From positions 62,001 through 126,000 of the forward strand of contig JAJRXK010000069.1 in the NCBI GenBank assembly GCA_024276305.1: a stretch of 64,000 nucleotides of DNA, written 5' to 3'. Below the pieces are notes generated by a model, which was given only the letters and a program-made list of their open reading frames with translations, had not been told where the DNA came from and made no database searches. The translations under genes were made by a program, and so were the position numbers. This document shows positions 11,698-18,248 of this stretch, in pieces. Position 1 is the stretch's first letter, and every line of letters starts with the position of its first letter. The DNA is from Candidatus Krumholzibacteriota bacterium. Its GTDB lineage: Bacteria; Krumholzibacteriota; Krumholzibacteriia; JAJRXK01.

Positions 11698-13494
11698 TCA
11701 GAGCTCGAGAAACTCGAAGTCGATGGCTGGCTCGGCTTGGTAGTGATAGCTGGCGCGAGCGGCGGCGCGGACTTCGGGCCGGAGCGGCCCGTCGTGGAGG
11801 ACGTCCCACACCACCCATCCAATGCCTCTGGCCCGAAGCCGAGGCAGATCCGAAGGGTCCAAGGGGGAGTCGAGACGAGTCAGGCGACGCTGGCCGAGGG
11901 GCAAGGCCAGAGCGCCGCCGAAGAGAGTCCCCATGCGACCCCACGAGCTGCGCGCGATGTGTTCGGCCGAGAGGAAGTCCGCCGCAAACACCGTCTCGGT
12001 GAATCGAGGAAAGTAATAGTCGAAACTGGAGCAGTATGCCCCGAGCTCGGGATCCCGACCCTGTCGTTGCTCCCAACGCAGAGCCCCTTCTGTCTCCACC
12101 ACCGCTGCCACGAAGATCACTACCACCGCGACCTCGCAAGCACGACGCAGCCTCGAGCCTCCCACCACCGATGTCGCCAACGCGGCGGCGGGCAGACCGA
12201 TGGCATGCAACCACAGGGAAAAGCGGGACCACCAGTTTCCAGGTTGGGCCACCAGGAAGACCAGAGCCACCAGGACGAGGCCCGGTGGCCAGGATGGAAT
12301 CCGCGGACGCCGAATCGTCAGCCAAACCAAGGACGGCAATCCCCACCCGATCCACAGGAGCCCAAGCCCACCCACGGCATTGTGACCCATCCGACGCGAA
12401 TCGAAGGTGACCCAACTCTTGACCGGACGCAGGACGGCGGGCCAAGCTCTCCAAGATGGGGGCAGGTCCTGTTCCACCATGGCGTGGGGGGAGTATCCTT
12501 CGACCAGAACTTTCTCTCCCACTCGCAACTCGATCGGATGCAGCGGATTCCCGGTGTGCACGATGTTCCGAGCTGGCCAATAGCCTCCCACGGCCAACAG
12601 GGCGGCCATGCCCAGAGAGAGTTGGAGCACCATCTGGGGAGCTTCCATCCGAGATCGAAACCAGCTGCCGATCAGCCAGACCAGAAGCAGAATCACCAGA
12701 AGCCACCCCAATCCCTTGGTTCCCACACAGAGACCGAGGGCCGCTCCCAACAGGAGAGCATCCCACCCCGAGGCGCGGGACTGCAGCCGGGACCACCGGA
12801 GAGCCGCCGCCACCGCGACCCAGCCCGTGATGGCGAAGGTCGCGTCCACATAGGTGGTCGTGGACAGAGCCACGAAAACCGGGATCTGGCCACTGAGGCC
12901 GGCTGCGAACCAGGACCAGGCCTCGGATGCCCCCACCTGTCGGCAAAGCAGGAACAAGGCGAAGAGCCCCAGCGGCCAGAACAGAAGGGTCGTGGCATCG
13001 ACCCACTGACTCTGCCCGGTGAGTTGGTGAACCACGAAGCCGAGCACTTCGCTCCCCATGGGATATCCGTTGGCGAAGGGAATGTCCGCCAGACCTTCCA
13101 GCCAGGTCACTCTGCCCGCCTCGACCCATCCGCTCAGTGCAGGCAGGTGATAGTAGAGCCCATCCCAGTCGTAGACCGGCCGATTCCAGGCCAGCCAGGC
13201 CACCCGGAAGAACTGAACGCACCAAGCCACCAATGCGATCAGAGCCAAGCACTTCGCGAAAAGGTGGTCTCGACGGCGTTCCAGTCGACTGGGTTGGAGA
13301 CGACGAGCCCCCCACAATCCGAGGAGGGCAGCCAATACCACCCAGACCGCGACCACCTCACGACCACAGGTCCACCCCAACGCCGACCCGCCCAGCACCA
13401 GGGATTCCAGGGTGGCCAGAAAGATCACTCCGAATCCGAAGGATCGGAGTGCCACTTCATCGCCGGACTTCGCCCATCCCTTCACGTTCCCCAT
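11698..13494 (-). CDS. GT-C family membrane glycosyltransferase
   Basis: The 598-residue protein has about eleven membrane helices and an acidic first-loop motif (VYDWDGLYYHLPALSGW, then FANGYPMGSEV) like GT39/ArnT-type GT-C enzymes that use polyprenyl-phosphate sugars. The soluble C-terminus holds YCSSFDYYFPRF and an alpha/beta segment. ATG 13494 overlaps the stop of the preceding gene as TGATG, so it is coupled to the polysaccharide operon (GT2, bactofilin-like, fusion protein). It may modify or decorate the polymer. Substrate unknown. An ATG at 13530 would lie inside the upstream gene and is less likely. Confidence 0.75.
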   Translation of the reverse strand: MGNVKGWAKSGDEVALRSFGFGVIFLATLESLVLGGSALGWTCGREVVAVWVVLAALLGLWGARRLQPSRLERRRDHLFAKCLALIALVAWCVQFFRVAWLAWNRPVYDWDGLYYHLPALSGWVEAGRVTWLEGLADIPFANGYPMGSEVLGFVVHQLTGQSQWVDATTLLFWPLGLFALFLLCRQVGASEAWSWFAAGLSGQIPVFVALSTTTYVDATFAITGWVAVAAALRWSRLQSRASGWDALLLGAALGLCVGTKGLGWLLVILLLVWLIGSWFRSRMEAPQMVLQLSLGMAALLAVGGYWPARNIVHTGNPLHPIELRVGEKVLVEGYSPHAMVEQDLPPSWRAWPAVLRPVKSWVTFDSRRMGHNAVGGLGLLWIGWGLPSLVWLTIRRPRIPSWPPGLVLVALVFLVAQPGNWWSRFSLWLHAIGLPAAALATSVVGGSRLRRACEVAVVVIFVAAVVETEGALRWEQRQGRDPELGAYCSSFDYYFPRFTETVFAADFLSAEHIARSSWGRMGTLFGGALALPLGQRRLTRLDSPLDPSDLPRLRARGIGWVVWDVLHDGPLRPEVRAAARASYHYQAEPAIDFEFLEL

Positions 13495-15083
13495 CACCAC
13501 TCTCGGAACAGACGGAGCGACAGGCCCCAAAGGTCGTAGACCTCACTGCGAAACTGTTCGAATCGGAGCGAAACGCCGCGATCGCTCCGCAGATACCAGG
13601 TGCCGCTCAAATCCCAGGACCAACTCGAGAAATCCACCTGTGGCTGGCCAGGCACGATGAGCACGTAAGAGGTCTCTCCGAAATGCAGACCCGAACCCAG
13701 ATAGTAGCGACGCCACCGTCCCCACCTCAATCCCAGGTTCGTGGTCTTCGACAGGGTGGATCCGGGTTGACCGATCTCGATCCTTTCGGAGGCCGAGACC
13801 GCCCACCGATCGGTCATCGGCCAGAAGAGTCCCAATTCTCCCCCATCCGAAGTGTTCGCCGATTTGTAGTCGAAGTGGGTGAAGCCGATCCGCAGAATCA
13901 ATGGGGTTCCCAGCACCGCGTCCTTGCGCAAGCCCAAGTCCACCCGCAGATCGGGAAAGATCACTTCGCCACTCCCCGAGGACAATCCGAGCGAGAGGCC
14001 GAGCCGCGGCGCGACTTCCCTCTCGTAGAGCAGCCCTACGCCCACCCCCTCGTCGCCGAAACGCGCCGAGTGCCCCAGATCCAGCCGCAAGCGGTCCAAC
14101 CCGGGTCTCATCATCGACCACGCGAGGAATTGATCGTTCCCATCACCGAGGCCTTCGGTGAATCCGGCGTATCCGGCCCCCAACTCCAGGCTGTAGCCCC
14201 GATCCGCTCGCACCGGACTCGCCACCACGGCGATGCCCAGAGCGATCACCACCATCGTCACGCGCTGCACCGTGAACTCCCCGTAGCGCATGCGGAGATA
14301 GGGCAGAGGTTGCCAACTCACGGCCCAGCTGTAGAAGGCGATCACCACCGCCACGTCCACCGCGAGACCGAACATCCAGAAGAGCATGGGCATCCACAGG
14401 AGCGAAAAGTGATGGATCACATATGCGTGGGCACAGTACTGCAGAGGAAGGAAGACGATGAGATGGACCATCGTGAGCACGGTGGCGGTCATCTTCTTCA
14501 GCAGCGAGAAGTCCAGAACGAAATAGGTGAGGCCGTAGATCCATGGCACGAGCCCGATCACGAAGTAGCCGGCTGCGAACAGAACCACGGTGAGCGAAGC
14601 GATATCGTGGGGAAAGGAGCCCGGAAACATCCGAAACACGAACTGACTGTTGAGTTGAAGAATCACCAGGAGCCGCAGGAAATAGATCGCCGGCAGATTC
14701 CGACGCGGGAGAAGCCACGAAAGGATCCACGCCACTCCACAGAGAAGGATTCCGATCCACCACTGCACCACGGAGGGCTCGGCTGCGGGCACCACCAATT
14801 GAGGAACGTCGATGGCGAGTCCGCTCCTCGAAACGAGGTGCTGGATCACCACCTCGCCTGGCAGTCCCAGTGCCTCCATCGAGAATCGGAGCATTCGGAA
14901 CCACAACCGGACCACCATCGGAGCGGCGAGCCACCAGGCCAGAGAGAAGAGGAGAACCGTCAGGACCGACCCGATCGAGGCCGTCCACCGGGGCCGGAGC
15001 GTGAGCATCGCACGGTGGGGAAGAATGACTCCACCTCGGTGTCCCGTGCGCCGCAGCTTCAATTCTCGGGAGCCGCGACTCAC
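13494..15083 (-). CDS. Inner-membrane domain fused to YaiO-like beta-barrel
   Basis: GTG 15083 overlaps the upstream stop as GTGA and gives 529 residues. Residues about 26-265 hold six or seven membrane helices with little loop. Residues about 272-293 then form a typical Sec signal sequence (MVVIALGIAVVASPVRA, cleavage before DRGYS). Residues 294-529 consist of alternating amphipathic strands ending LSLRLFREW, like an outer-membrane beta-barrel of YaiO/PgaA-C type. An inner-membrane block and an outer-membrane barrel in one chain is paradoxical unless it is cleaved. An internal GTG at 14270 has GGGGAG six bases upstream and would make the barrel with its own signal peptide. It could be a fused pair of genes, a polyprotein, or two nested products. 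Confidence 0.7.
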   Translation of the reverse strand: MSRGSRELKLRRTGHRGGVILPHRAMLTLRPRWTASIGSVLTVLLFSLAWWLAAPMVVRLWFRMLRFSMEALGLPGEVVIQHLVSRSGLAIDVPQLVVPAAEPSVVQWWIGILLCGVAWILSWLLPRRNLPAIYFLRLLVILQLNSQFVFRMFPGSFPHDIASLTVVLFAAGYFVIGLVPWIYGLTYFVLDFSLLKKMTATVLTMVHLIVFLPLQYCAHAYVIHHFSLLWMPMLFWMFGLAVDVAVVIAFYSWAVSWQPLPYLRMRYGEFTVQRVTMVVIALGIAVVASPVRADRGYSLELGAGYAGFTEGLGDGNDQFLAWSMMRPGLDRLRLDLGHSARFGDEGVGVGLLYEREVAPRLGLSLGLSSGSGEVIFPDLRVDLGLRKDAVLGTPLILRIGFTHFDYKSANTSDGGELGLFWPMTDRWAVSASERIEIGQPGSTLSKTTNLGLRWGRWRRYYLGSGLHFGETSYVLIVPGQPQVDFSSWSWDLSGTWYLRSDRGVSLRFEQFRSEVYDLWGLSLRLFREW

Positions 15084-16153
15084 GACGACACCACCTTGCC
15101 GGTCTCGGCAGCCCACAGGCTTCCGTGAACCCGCGCTCTCTCGGTGATTTCGATGCTTCGAGCCCGAGCGGTGGATGGGCGATCGAGGTCCCCGATTCGA
15201 GCATCGACACCGATCCACAGTTCTTCCTCGGTCAGAATCGGACCGTGAACATAGGTCCCCCTGCGGATCTCGATACGACCGACTGCGACCACCGCTCCCT
15301 CGAGCCACGCCCCTTCTTCGACCACGACTTGCCCGTGGGCTTTGAGGCTGCCCCGGACCCTGGCCCCGGGCCCTACGTAGAGATTCCCCCGCGCCACGAT
15401 GTCACACTCCACCAGCGAGTTCGCCGGCAACTGCAGGTCTCCCTCCACCAGGACTCGATTCGCCCGAACATCGACGTTGTGACCGAGTTCCCCGGGGTCC
15501 AAGCGACGATCGGGATCGGGGTGGGTCGGCTCCTCGGGCTTCGCGACTCCCACCAGGATAGTCGGAGCATGTAGTCTCTCGAAGAATGTACCCGGACGGA
15601 GGAAGAGAGCTTCGTCCGCGGAGGCGCGCCCGAAGAGCTGGGTCTCCTCACCCACCACCAAGTGGTGCCCAGCATGAACCCACCGCAGAATCCGACTCCG
15701 GGGAGCGAGCTCGAGATCGCCTTCGCTCAGCACGGCCCGGATTCGGGTCGCGTGGGTGAAACAGAGGTCTCCGGCGGCATAGACCTCGCAATTCAACTCA
15801 CCTGCTCCCCGCAGGACCAACTCGCCCGTGCCCACGACGAGCCTCCCCTCCACCGTCGCCACCTCCAGCTCTGCACCACTGGGAACGACCACATAGGACC
15901 CCACCCCTTCCCCGTGCCCTTCGGCCGGAGTGCGGGATTGTCGGACTTCGTTCATGACCCAACCCAATCGTGCCTGCAGGAAGTCACGCAATCCATTGGC
16001 GAAGTGCCGTACGTCCACCCTCGACCGGCGACTCACGGTGAGCGGGGTCGCGTCGCGGTGGAACTGGAGTTCCCGGAGGGCGGGGACGAAAGGAAGTACC
16101 GCACAGAACAAGACCAAGGCAAAGAAGACGAAGGTCGTGACGGGAACGCTCAT
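15080..16153 (-). CDS. Membrane-anchored bactofilin-like polymer-forming protein
   Basis: The 357-residue protein has one N-terminal membrane helix (about 5-28) followed by Arg/His-rich sequence, which by the positive-inside rule puts the remainder in the cytoplasm. Residues about 85-355 are a series of short strands with periodic Gly/Val (GELVLRGAGELNCEVYAAGD, GNLYVGPGARVRGSLKAHGQ, GRIEIRRGTYVHGPILTEEE), the right-handed beta-helix of bactofilins (polymer-forming cytoskeletal family). It may scaffold the GT2 synthase: its ATG overlaps the GT2 stop as ATGA and its own stop overlaps the next gene. Bactofilins are usually 120-200 residues, so this is a long, membrane-tethered form. Confidence 0.75.
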   Translation of the reverse strand: MSVPVTTFVFFALVLFCAVLPFVPALRELQFHRDATPLTVSRRSRVDVRHFANGLRDFLQARLGWVMNEVRQSRTPAEGHGEGVGSYVVVPSGAELEVATVEGRLVVGTGELVLRGAGELNCEVYAAGDLCFTHATRIRAVLSEGDLELAPRSRILRWVHAGHHLVVGEETQLFGRASADEALFLRPGTFFERLHAPTILVGVAKPEEPTHPDPDRRLDPGELGHNVDVRANRVLVEGDLQLPANSLVECDIVARGNLYVGPGARVRGSLKAHGQVVVEEGAWLEGAVVAVGRIEIRRGTYVHGPILTEEELWIGVDARIGDLDRPSTARARSIEITERARVHGSLWAAETGKVVSS

Positions 16154-17424
16154 CCCCCATCTCCCTTCTTCTCCGTTCTCTGCCACCGAAGCGGTCGTCG
16201 GGAATCGTGGGAGATGATTTGAGCCAGAGTACCCGTGGCCACCGCGAAGAGAGTCACCAGGAACCCCACCGCGATGAAGGGAATCAGCCGGGCCCGATGA
16301 CGGGTGCCATCGAGGTGGGTCGCCGCCGCCACCTCGTAGAAAGTGGCAAAGTTTCCCAGGGTGGAGTAGATGGCGACCATGAGCACGATGATCAATCCGG
16401 CCTTGTTCACCCCCAGGAACCAGAGGGAGAGAGCGACCGCCCAACCCACGATCATCATCAGGGGCATGGCGTAGATCCCCAACAGGAGTGAGCCATCCAC
16501 TTTCTCCAACCAACTCACTCCGGGACGCATCCAGAGCGGTCGCAGGTAGCGCGCCAGACATTGGTTGTGACCGCGGGCCCAGCGAGTGACCTGGTGCTTG
16601 CGCGCATCCCAATCCTCGGGCACCTCTTCGTAGCACTCCGATCGGTTTTGGTAGACCGTCTTCCAGCCTCCCAGGAGCAAACGGAAGGTCGCGTCGGTAT
16701 CCTCGGCCAGGGAGTCGGACCCCCATCCCCCCACACTCTGCAGCGCCGATCGACGGACCCCTCCCACCGTCCCCCCATACTGAGGCACGAGGCCCAGGTT
16801 CATCCGGGCCTGCTGGTCCACCTGATAGCCCCCCGATCGCTCCAGGTCGATGAGGCGGGTGATCATCCTCCGGTGAACGTTCTGAGGCACCACCCTTCCC
16901 ATCACCGCCCCGACTTCGGGGTCGAAGAAGGGAGCTACGAGTTGCTTGATCAGGCCGATCCCAGGAACGTAGTCCGCGTCGAAGATGAGTACGATGTCGG
17001 TGGCGATGTAGTTCATGGCCCACTCCAGGGCCGCGCCCTTTCCTGCGACTCCCTCCTTGCGATGCAGTCCGAAGATGCGGTGGCGATGACGCGCCGAGTA
17101 GTCGGCGATGATGGCGGCCGTTCGATCTGTGCTGCGATCATCGAGAGGAACCACCCGCAGCCGGTGCTCGGGATAGTCCACATCGAGCAGTGCATCGAGG
17201 ACCCGGCTGATCACCTTCTCCTCGTTGTGGCAGGGAACCACGACCGTTACGAAGGGCCAGTCGGCCTCGTCGATGTCGAGATAGGGGTATCGCTGCCGTC
17301 CGAAGAGACGATTGAGGGTGAAGAGATAGTGCCGCACGAGGTAGACGCAGATGATCGCCACCACGATCACCAATACGATGATCTGGATTTGGATATGCAG
17401 CGGGTACGGCAAAATCTTCCCCAA
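16150..17424 (-). CDS. Processive GT2 polysaccharide synthase (BcsA/PgaC-like)
   Basis: The 424-residue protein has an N-terminal membrane helix (about 10-32), a GT-A catalytic domain with PCHNEE (64-69), DDRSTD (95-100), FDADY (148-152), EDTD (241-244) and QVTRW (278-282), then about four C-terminal helices. The D, DxD, TED-like and QxxRW set defines processive family 2 synthases that polymerise and extrude cellulose, poly-GlcNAc or hyaluronan-type chains. No PilZ domain is present. It is first in an overlapping four-gene set with a bactofilin-like protein, a membrane/beta-barrel fusion and a GT-C enzyme. The polymer made cannot be told from sequence alone. Confidence 0.9.
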   Translation of the reverse strand: MGKILPYPLHIQIQIIVLVIVVAIICVYLVRHYLFTLNRLFGRQRYPYLDIDEADWPFVTVVVPCHNEEKVISRVLDALLDVDYPEHRLRVVPLDDRSTDRTAAIIADYSARHRHRIFGLHRKEGVAGKGAALEWAMNYIATDIVLIFDADYVPGIGLIKQLVAPFFDPEVGAVMGRVVPQNVHRRMITRLIDLERSGGYQVDQQARMNLGLVPQYGGTVGGVRRSALQSVGGWGSDSLAEDTDATFRLLLGGWKTVYQNRSECYEEVPEDWDARKHQVTRWARGHNQCLARYLRPLWMRPGVSWLEKVDGSLLLGIYAMPLMMIVGWAVALSLWFLGVNKAGLIIVLMVAIYSTLGNFATFYEVAAATHLDGTRHRARLIPFIAVGFLVTLFAVATGTLAQIISHDSRRPLRWQRTEKKGDGG

Positions 17425-17585: not shown

Positions 17586-18248
17586 TCAGGGACTCTTCTT
17601 CAGAATGGTCATGGCCCCGAGGCGGACGAGACCTCCTGCCGGCACTTCGAGAGGTACGGAGTCGAGCCCTTCGACGAGATGGTCGAAGACCCCGGTCTCG
17701 TAGCCCATTTTCTCGCACAGTACTCGATAGCCTCGAAAGGCGGGGACGCCACCAATCATGAAGGTCCCATCGGCCTTGGTAACTCCCATGAGGCTGGTGT
17801 TCTCGATGCGTACCATGACTCCGCTGTGATCCGAGGACTCTCCATCGAGATAGACTGCACCGAACATCATCCCGGTCTTCTGTACCACTACCGTGCCTAA
17901 CCCATAGGACTGCTGCCCCTTGACCTTGAAGTGCGCCACGAGAAATCCCACCGAATCCATCTCGCGCATCCCAAAGCCTCGCACCGTGTAATAGCGACCC
18001 ATTCCCGTCCGATCCACCGCGAGCAATCCGTTCATCACGAATCGTCCCTGGGCATCGGTGATGGAAGTCATCCCGGTTTCCTCGACCAACACCGTGATCC
18101 CCGATGCCGGATTCCCATCGGGATAGATCATCTTGCCGTAAATCGTTCCCGTCGCCGGACTGGTGGGAGTCTCACCGCAACCGCCGGTCATCAGAAAGAG
18201 ACTGCAAGCCAAGACGGCCAATGCGGACCTGCCGATTCTTCGAATCAT
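17586..18248 (-). CDS. Carboxypeptidase-regulatory-like lipoprotein
   Basis: The 220-residue product has a signal peptide with lipobox (FLMTGGCGETP) and two beta-sandwich repeats of the carboxypeptidase regulatory-like type: GKMIYPDGNPASGITVLVEE followed by TDAQGRFVMNGL, and GAVYLDGESSDHSGVMVRIE followed by KADGTFMIGGV. Such domains are secreted modules for adhesion or protein-protein contact. It starts 4 bp after the stop of the beta-barrel gene and so closes the operon TlpA - beta-barrel - lipoprotein. It has no catalytic domain. The precise role is unknown. Confidence 0.75.
   Translation of the reverse strand: MIRRIGRSALAVLACSLFLMTGGCGETPTSPATGTIYGKMIYPDGNPASGITVLVEETGMTSITDAQGRFVMNGLLAVDRTGMGRYYTVRGFGMREMDSVGFLVAHFKVKGQQSYGLGTVVVQKTGMMFGAVYLDGESSDHSGVMVRIENTSLMGVTKADGTFMIGGVPAFRGYRVLCEKMGYETGVFDHLVEGLDSVPLEVPAGGLVRLGAMTILKKSP

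What the first reader, a model, noticed from the sequence alone, without database searches (positions are those of the whole stretch)
13494..15083. Inner-membrane domain fused in frame to an outer-membrane barrel, with an internal start
One chain holds six or seven TM helices, then a perfect signal-peptide-like segment, then a 236-residue beta-barrel. The two halves belong in different membranes. GTG 14270 with GGGGAG six bases upstream could start the barrel separately with its own signal peptide. So this is either a cleaved polyprotein, a nested gene, or a lost stop codon.
Basis: partly seen in the sequence, partly recalled or inferred. Interest (0 to 1): 0.7.

Follow-up and report, generated by a model that had tools for sequence, protein, structure and literature searches.

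The report
Inner-/outer-membrane polyprotein with internal signal peptide
In this Krumholzibacteriota bacterium one gene encodes an inner-membrane protein joined to an outer-membrane barrel through a built-in export signal, so one chain probably has to be cut to supply parts to both membranes of a sugar-polymer export machine, and the same kind of join has arisen at least three times independently.

Summary
Window 15083→13494 (- strand, GTG start) encodes 529 aa: a 6-TM inner-membrane domain, a basic linker, a signal-peptide-like segment with a V-R-A|D site after residue 293, then a 14-strand YaiO-family outer-membrane barrel (236 aa). The organism belongs to Krumholzibacteriota. The 6-TM half has no Pfam, NCBIfam or PDB match. 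In at least five phyla its gene is almost always beside a YaiO barrel gene and near a PgaC-like synthase/bactofilin-like gene pair: a probable synthase-dependent exopolysaccharide cassette.

Most orthologues encode the halves as two genes; three encode one chain (the window, a congener at ~41% identity, a distant relative). The tree needs two independent fusions. A third fusion type sits elsewhere in this genome and in another genus of its family: the PgaC-like synthase itself fused to a YaiO-like barrel. Best explanation: loss of the stop between coupled genes produced a polyprotein cut by signal peptidase I, after which the barrel goes to BAM. Cleavage and polymer export are inferred, not shown.

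The parts
13494..15083 (-). fused gene, 529 aa: 6-TM inner-membrane domain + internal signal peptide + YaiO barrel
14313..15083 (-). residues 1-257: 6-TM domain of an undescribed family, N-in/C-in (inferred), periplasmic beta hairpin 77-97
   Evidence: AF2 pLDDT 90; no Pfam/NCBIfam/PDB sequence match; alignments A1, A4
14262..14312 (-). residues 258-274: basic cytoplasmic linker = n-region of the internal signal peptide
   Evidence: sequence; net +2 in the 15 residues upstream of the core; AF2 pLDDT <50 over most of 263-290
14205..14261 (-). residues 275-293: signal-peptide h- and c-region, predicted cleavage V-R-A|D after residue 293
   Evidence: corresponds to the N-terminal signal peptides of split orthologues
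13497..14204 (-). residues 294-529: YaiO-family outer-membrane beta-barrel, 14 strands, terminal R-E-W
   Evidence: TIGR04390 E 1.8e-18; PF19413; AF2; Foldseek to OmpG and other porins
16150..17424 (-). processive GT2 synthase, PgaC/IcaA-like, QxxRW motif (QVTRW at residue 278)
   Evidence: PF13641 E 2.3e-28; TIGR03937 E 1e-34 but below its cut-off; motif
15080..16153 (-). bactofilin-like protein with an N-terminal hydrophobic segment; ATGA overlap with GT2
   Evidence: PF04519 E 2.8e-7
11698..13494 (-). polytopic PMT-like protein, TGATG overlap with the fused gene; often the next gene in related cassettes
   Evidence: (PF02366 weak, below cut-off)

Best explanation
The gene is an in-frame fusion of two operon neighbours of a probable synthase-dependent exopolysaccharide export cassette: an undescribed 6-TM inner-membrane protein and a YaiO-family outer-membrane barrel. 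Shown: the fusion, its recurrence, the split orthologues and the conserved adjacency of the two halves. Inferred mechanism: the ribosome makes one chain. The TM domain inserts with its C-terminus in the cytoplasm (six helices, basic linker). The following segment then acts as a second, internal signal peptide that carries the barrel to the periplasm. Signal peptidase I cuts after VRA (residue 293). The released 236-residue barrel is folded into the outer membrane by BAM through its intact C-terminus, while the TM domain stays in the inner membrane with the synthase. The fusion most likely arose by loss of the stop between coupled genes and is tolerated because the second gene kept its own signal peptide. 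Inferred function: the pair forms the inner-membrane accessory and outer-membrane exit pore for a polymer made by the adjacent PgaC-like synthase.
For: Single open frame with both domains by HMM and structure. Split orthologues have the barrel starting with a signal peptide just after the same TM end; G048 has TAG-ATG in the same frame. Fused in G000, G001 and G029; the tree needs two changes, forced by starred branches. Second fusion type in the same genome: PgaC-like GT2 + YaiO (G000:C74) and G003, 52% identical over nearly their full length, while in G047, G059 and G045 the GT2 ends shortly after the same WDKFERKGF motif and YaiO is a separate overlapping gene. No usable internal start in four of the five fused genes, and none at all in the scanned junction of G000:C74. 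All five junctions have a net positive charge upstream, a 17-20 residue uncharged run and a small-x-small site, like the split barrels' signal peptides. Only about 8 residues separate the hydrophobic segment from strand 1 in the window, too few to span a periplasm uncut. The genome encodes one S26 signal peptidase and several Omp85-family proteins. Fusion was seen only in the order TM-then-barrel, the only order that leaves the barrel's C-terminus free.
Against: No proteomic, ribosome-profiling or expression data; cleavage is inferred from sequence. The window itself does have a possible internal GTG start. No dedicated signal-peptide predictor was available. The polymer and the transport function rest on gene neighbourhood alone; the paper searches turned up no proven function of YaiO. 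The genomes are draft assemblies, most of the named ones metagenome-derived. The YaiO matches in the GT2 fusions are weak (33-37 bits against a cut-off of 32; G003 30 bits).
Confidence: 0.75

Rival explanations
1. Nested gene: in the window species the barrel is mainly translated separately from GTG 14270 with its own signal peptide, and the fused chain is a minor or dead-end product.
For: In-frame GTG with GGGGAG 6 nt upstream, placed just before a basic residue and the hydrophobic core; relatives make the barrel from its own start.
Against: No such start in the other TM-YaiO fusions (G001, G029) or in the GT2-YaiO fusions. The Shine-Dalgarno match is only GGAG, and 4-nt matches of this kind precede many in-frame start codons here.
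Confidence: 0.13
2. Uncleaved chain: the segment is a seventh TM helix and the barrel stays tethered to the inner membrane, in an envelope contact or misfolded.
For: The segment has 17-20 uncharged residues, enough to span a membrane; the single-chain state is kept in G001.
Against: About 8 residues between helix and first strand cannot bridge a periplasm; a small-x-small site follows the core in all five fused genes; the barrel's C-terminus is conserved as in the separate barrels.
Confidence: 0.07
3. Assembly or sequencing error, or a decaying gene: the missing stop is an artefact or pseudogenisation.
For: Draft genomes; most orthologues are split.
Against: Fusion recurs in three TM-YaiO and two GT2-YaiO genes in independent genomes, with both halves conserved over large divergence.
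Confidence: 0.02

Closest known systems
YaiO family outer-membrane barrel (TIGR04390/PF19413; E. coli YaiO)
   Same: The whole barrel half matches the model end to end (positions 2-230 of 230), with a barrel fold and a C-terminal aromatic residue. Among 14 control genomes the family was found only in E. coli.
   Different: E. coli YaiO is, from my own knowledge, a stand-alone secreted protein; here the barrel is the C-terminal part of a polytopic inner-membrane chain.
LtaS of Staphylococcus aureus (polytopic membrane protein cut by signal peptidase SpsB)
   Same: Polytopic N-terminal domain followed by an exported domain released by a type I signal peptidase (cut between A217 and S218; PMC10865820).
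   Different: Gram-positive; one enzyme whose exported domain is released. Here the two products belong to different membranes and exist as separate genes in relatives.
Bradyrhizobium japonicum FbcH cytochrome b/c1 precursor
   Same: From memory: one gene encodes a polytopic inner-membrane protein followed by an exported protein with its own signal peptide, cut in two. No open-access paper found to cite.
   Different: Both products stay in one inner-membrane complex; no outer-membrane barrel.
Synthase-dependent exopolysaccharide systems (PgaABCD, BcsABC)
   Same: Processive GT2 synthase with QxxRW next to an inner-membrane partner and an outer-membrane barrel; some related cassettes carry a UDP-GlcNAc 2-epimerase or a weakly matching polysaccharide deacetylase.
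   Different: The GT2 is below the PgaC cut-off (120 of 422 bits); the barrel is YaiO, not PgaA/BcsC; the 6-TM partner has no family match; a bactofilin-like protein is paired with the synthase.

Membership tests
YaiO family (TIGR04390) | Score above curated cut-off over the domain | tested here: met
   67.4 bits against 32, residues 298-529
YaiO family (TIGR04390) | Beta-barrel fold | tested here: met
   14 strands, pLDDT mostly 85-97, Foldseek matches to OmpG and other porins
YaiO family (TIGR04390) | Located in the outer membrane | not testable with these tools
   Inference from fold and signal peptide only
PgaC/IcaA (TIGR03937), for the neighbouring synthase | Score above the equivalog cut-off | tested here: not met
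   120 bits against 422: same superfamily, not shown to be PgaC
Processive GT2 synthase | QxxRW motif in a GT2 domain | tested here: met
   QVTRW at residue 278; PF13641
Bactofilin (PF04519), for the upstream partner | Score above gathering cut-off | tested here: met
   31.1 bits against 27.9, residues 306-370 only
Any known inner-membrane family, for the TM half | Sequence or fold match | tested here: not met
   No convincing Pfam, NCBIfam or PDB sequence match; best PDB fold hit E 0.15, TM-scores about 0.2 or less
Signal-peptidase-cut polyprotein | Two products from one chain, cut at the internal signal peptide | not testable with these tools
   Site and topology fit; cleavage itself not observed

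The most novel reading that the evidence does not exclude
Making the inner-membrane export component and the outer-membrane exit pore as one precursor is selected for: it fixes a 1:1 ratio and releases the barrel directly opposite the synthase, so the polyprotein is a device for assembling a trans-envelope machine, reached convergently at least three times with two unrelated inner-membrane partners.
Probability: 0.25. Interest if true: 0.82.

Novelty: new variant of a known kind. Interest (0 to 1): 0.62.

Why it matters
To my knowledge no bacterial polyprotein is described that supplies one product to the inner and one to the outer membrane; the paper searches gave none, though the library is open-access only. 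Repeated fusion of two unrelated inner-membrane partners to the same barrel family is strong evidence that these proteins work together. It points to a function for YaiO (exit pore of a synthase-dependent polysaccharide) and names an undescribed inner-membrane family as its partner. It also warns that such genes will be mislabelled by annotation and topology programs.

Tried and rejected
A scan of genome contigs with the single protein found nothing; the alignment found 29 loci. Searches of the Eiseniibacteriota phylum (7 genomes) and the Polarisedimenticola class (41) added no further member. A Gemmatimonadota class search added relatives, none fused; their long open frames do not hold both domains. 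Foldseek of the TM half against PDB gave nothing usable. YaiO hits in frames of 402-565 aa in other relatives: the one read out (G071) is a barrel with its own signal peptide inside a long open frame; G040, G050, G054, G060 and G065 were not read out, so a further fusion there is not excluded. Paper searches for YaiO function and for internal-signal polyproteins gave little beyond LtaS. Plasmid search: only Cupriavidus, with barrel and TM in separate genes.

Full report
WHAT IS THERE. The frame at window 15083 to 13494 (- strand) is open for 529 codons and starts with a GTG that overlaps the stop of the upstream gene (GTGA). The C-terminal half matches the YaiO outer-membrane barrel family over the whole model (TIGR04390, residues 298-529, E 1.8e-18; PF19413). 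AlphaFold2 on an alignment of relatives gives a confident 6-TM domain (pLDDT 90; helices 33-72, 105-124, 127-152, 161-189, 194-225, 228-255, with a beta hairpin at 77-97), a poorly ordered junction (263-290, pLDDT mostly <50) and a 14-strand barrel from residue 296 to 527. Foldseek matches the barrel part to OmpG, FadL and other porins. With six helices and a basic N-terminus the TM domain's C-terminus should lie in the cytoplasm, the topology that a following signal peptide needs (inference).

THE TM HALF IS AN UNDESCRIBED FAMILY WITH A FIXED PARTNER. It has no convincing Pfam, NCBIfam or PDB match by sequence and none by fold. Relatives were found in Krumholzibacteriota, Eiseniibacteriota, Acidobacteriota, Gemmatimonadota, Pseudomonadota and one Bacteroidota bin. 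In most loci long enough to show it, the TM gene lies directly beside a YaiO barrel gene, in either order, and near an adjacent pair made of a processive GT2 synthase and a bactofilin-like protein. Three orders exist: GT2-bactofilin-TM-YaiO (this window), GT2-bactofilin-X-YaiO-TM, and YaiO-TM-GT2-bactofilin. X was a UDP-GlcNAc 2-epimerase in L045 and L060 and a weak polysaccharide-deacetylase match in L048 and L056. Exceptions: in G018 and G036 the barrel is on another contig, and in L101, L103, L104 and L106 no barrel was found next to the TM gene.

FUSED AND SPLIT ORTHOLOGUES. In the order TM-YaiO, G006, G010, G012, G030, G034, G048, L047, L050, L099 and L100 have two genes; G000 (window), G001 (same genus, 41% identity) and G029 have one. 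In G048 the two genes are in the same frame with only a TAG between them, so one base change could join them. On a tree of 45 TM sequences the window and G001 group together (100/98), and G029 groups with split G034 and G048 (100/99); the label needs two changes, forced by starred branches. No fusion was seen in the order YaiO-TM, where it would block the barrel's C-terminus.

A SECOND KIND OF FUSION IN THE SAME GENOME. A family search found another YaiO domain in G000:C74. It is the C-terminal part of a PgaC-like GT2 synthase, again with a signal-peptide-like segment between (KGFRSAVTTTLIALLGVVLALGPRNSSASEA). G003, another genus of the same family, has the same fusion (52% identity). In G047, G059 and G045 the synthase ends shortly after the same WDKFERKGF motif and the barrel is a separate overlapping gene in another frame with its own signal peptide. 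So inner-membrane parts have been fused to YaiO at least three times, each time at the barrel's signal peptide. The YaiO scores of these two are weak, and this third event was inferred from the family grouping, not from a tree.

POLYPROTEIN OR NESTED GENE. In the window a GTG at 14270 with GGGGAG upstream could start the barrel. In G001 and G029 no ATG/GTG/TTG lies between the last TM helix and the hydrophobic core in a position that would leave a basic n-region; in G000:C74 none was found in the scanned junction (55 codons), and in G003 only within the hydrophobic core. Independent initiation is therefore not what keeps fused genes working in general. All five junctions carry a net positive n-region, 17-20 uncharged residues and a small-x-small site, as the split barrels do. 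In the window about eight residues separate the hydrophobic segment from strand 1, too few to reach the outer membrane uncut. The genome has one S26 signal peptidase and several Omp85-family proteins. The best reading is a polyprotein cut by signal peptidase I. LtaS of S. aureus is a documented polytopic protein cut in that way (PMC10865820). The cytochrome b/c1 precursor of Bradyrhizobium is a closer precedent from memory only; I found no open-access text for it.

FUNCTION. The window operon is tightly coupled (ATGA, GTGA and TGATG overlaps): GT2, bactofilin-like, fused protein, PMT-like. By neighbourhood, the TM protein and YaiO are the inner-membrane accessory and outer-membrane exit of a synthase-dependent exopolysaccharide, with an amino sugar as a guess from the epimerase and deacetylase in related cassettes. 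This is inference; the GT2 is far below the PgaC cut-off.

VERDICT. Existence of the fusion is near certain; cleavage by signal peptidase I is likely (0.75); the polymer-export role is plausible (about 0.7).

Noticed in passing
L119:2512-4911 (+), i.e. G000:C74, outside the window: Second inner-membrane/YaiO fusion in the same genome: PgaC-like GT2 synthase with QRGRW joined to a YaiO-like barrel through a signal-peptide-like segment; preceded by an 842-aa HEAT-repeat protein. Same fusion in G003 (L139:2025-4367).
   Followed up: yes
L035:9787-10587, L037:6035-7039, L036:370-1203: Very distant relatives of the 6-TM family (E about 1e-10 to 1e-12) in G038, G060 and G074; in G038 and G060 on the same contig as a YaiO gene about 5-6 kb away, in G074 on another contig: perhaps a second type of cassette.
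   Followed up: partly
L030:5311 onward, L031:11250 onward: In G018 and G036 the gene after the TM gene is not YaiO but starts a protein with one hydrophobic segment near its N-terminus (VDWEKVTEKRDWS / VDWNTLSEKKDWSG); the YaiO gene lies on another contig.
   Followed up: no
L045, L060, L048, L056 between the bactofilin-like and YaiO genes: UDP-GlcNAc 2-epimerase (L045, L060) or a protein of about 615 aa with weak polysaccharide-deacetylase similarity (L048, L056): hints to the chemistry of the polymer.
   Followed up: partly
window 17586-18248 (-): Lipoprotein-like protein with carboxypeptidase-regulatory-like domains just upstream of the GT2 gene; may belong to the operon.
   Followed up: no
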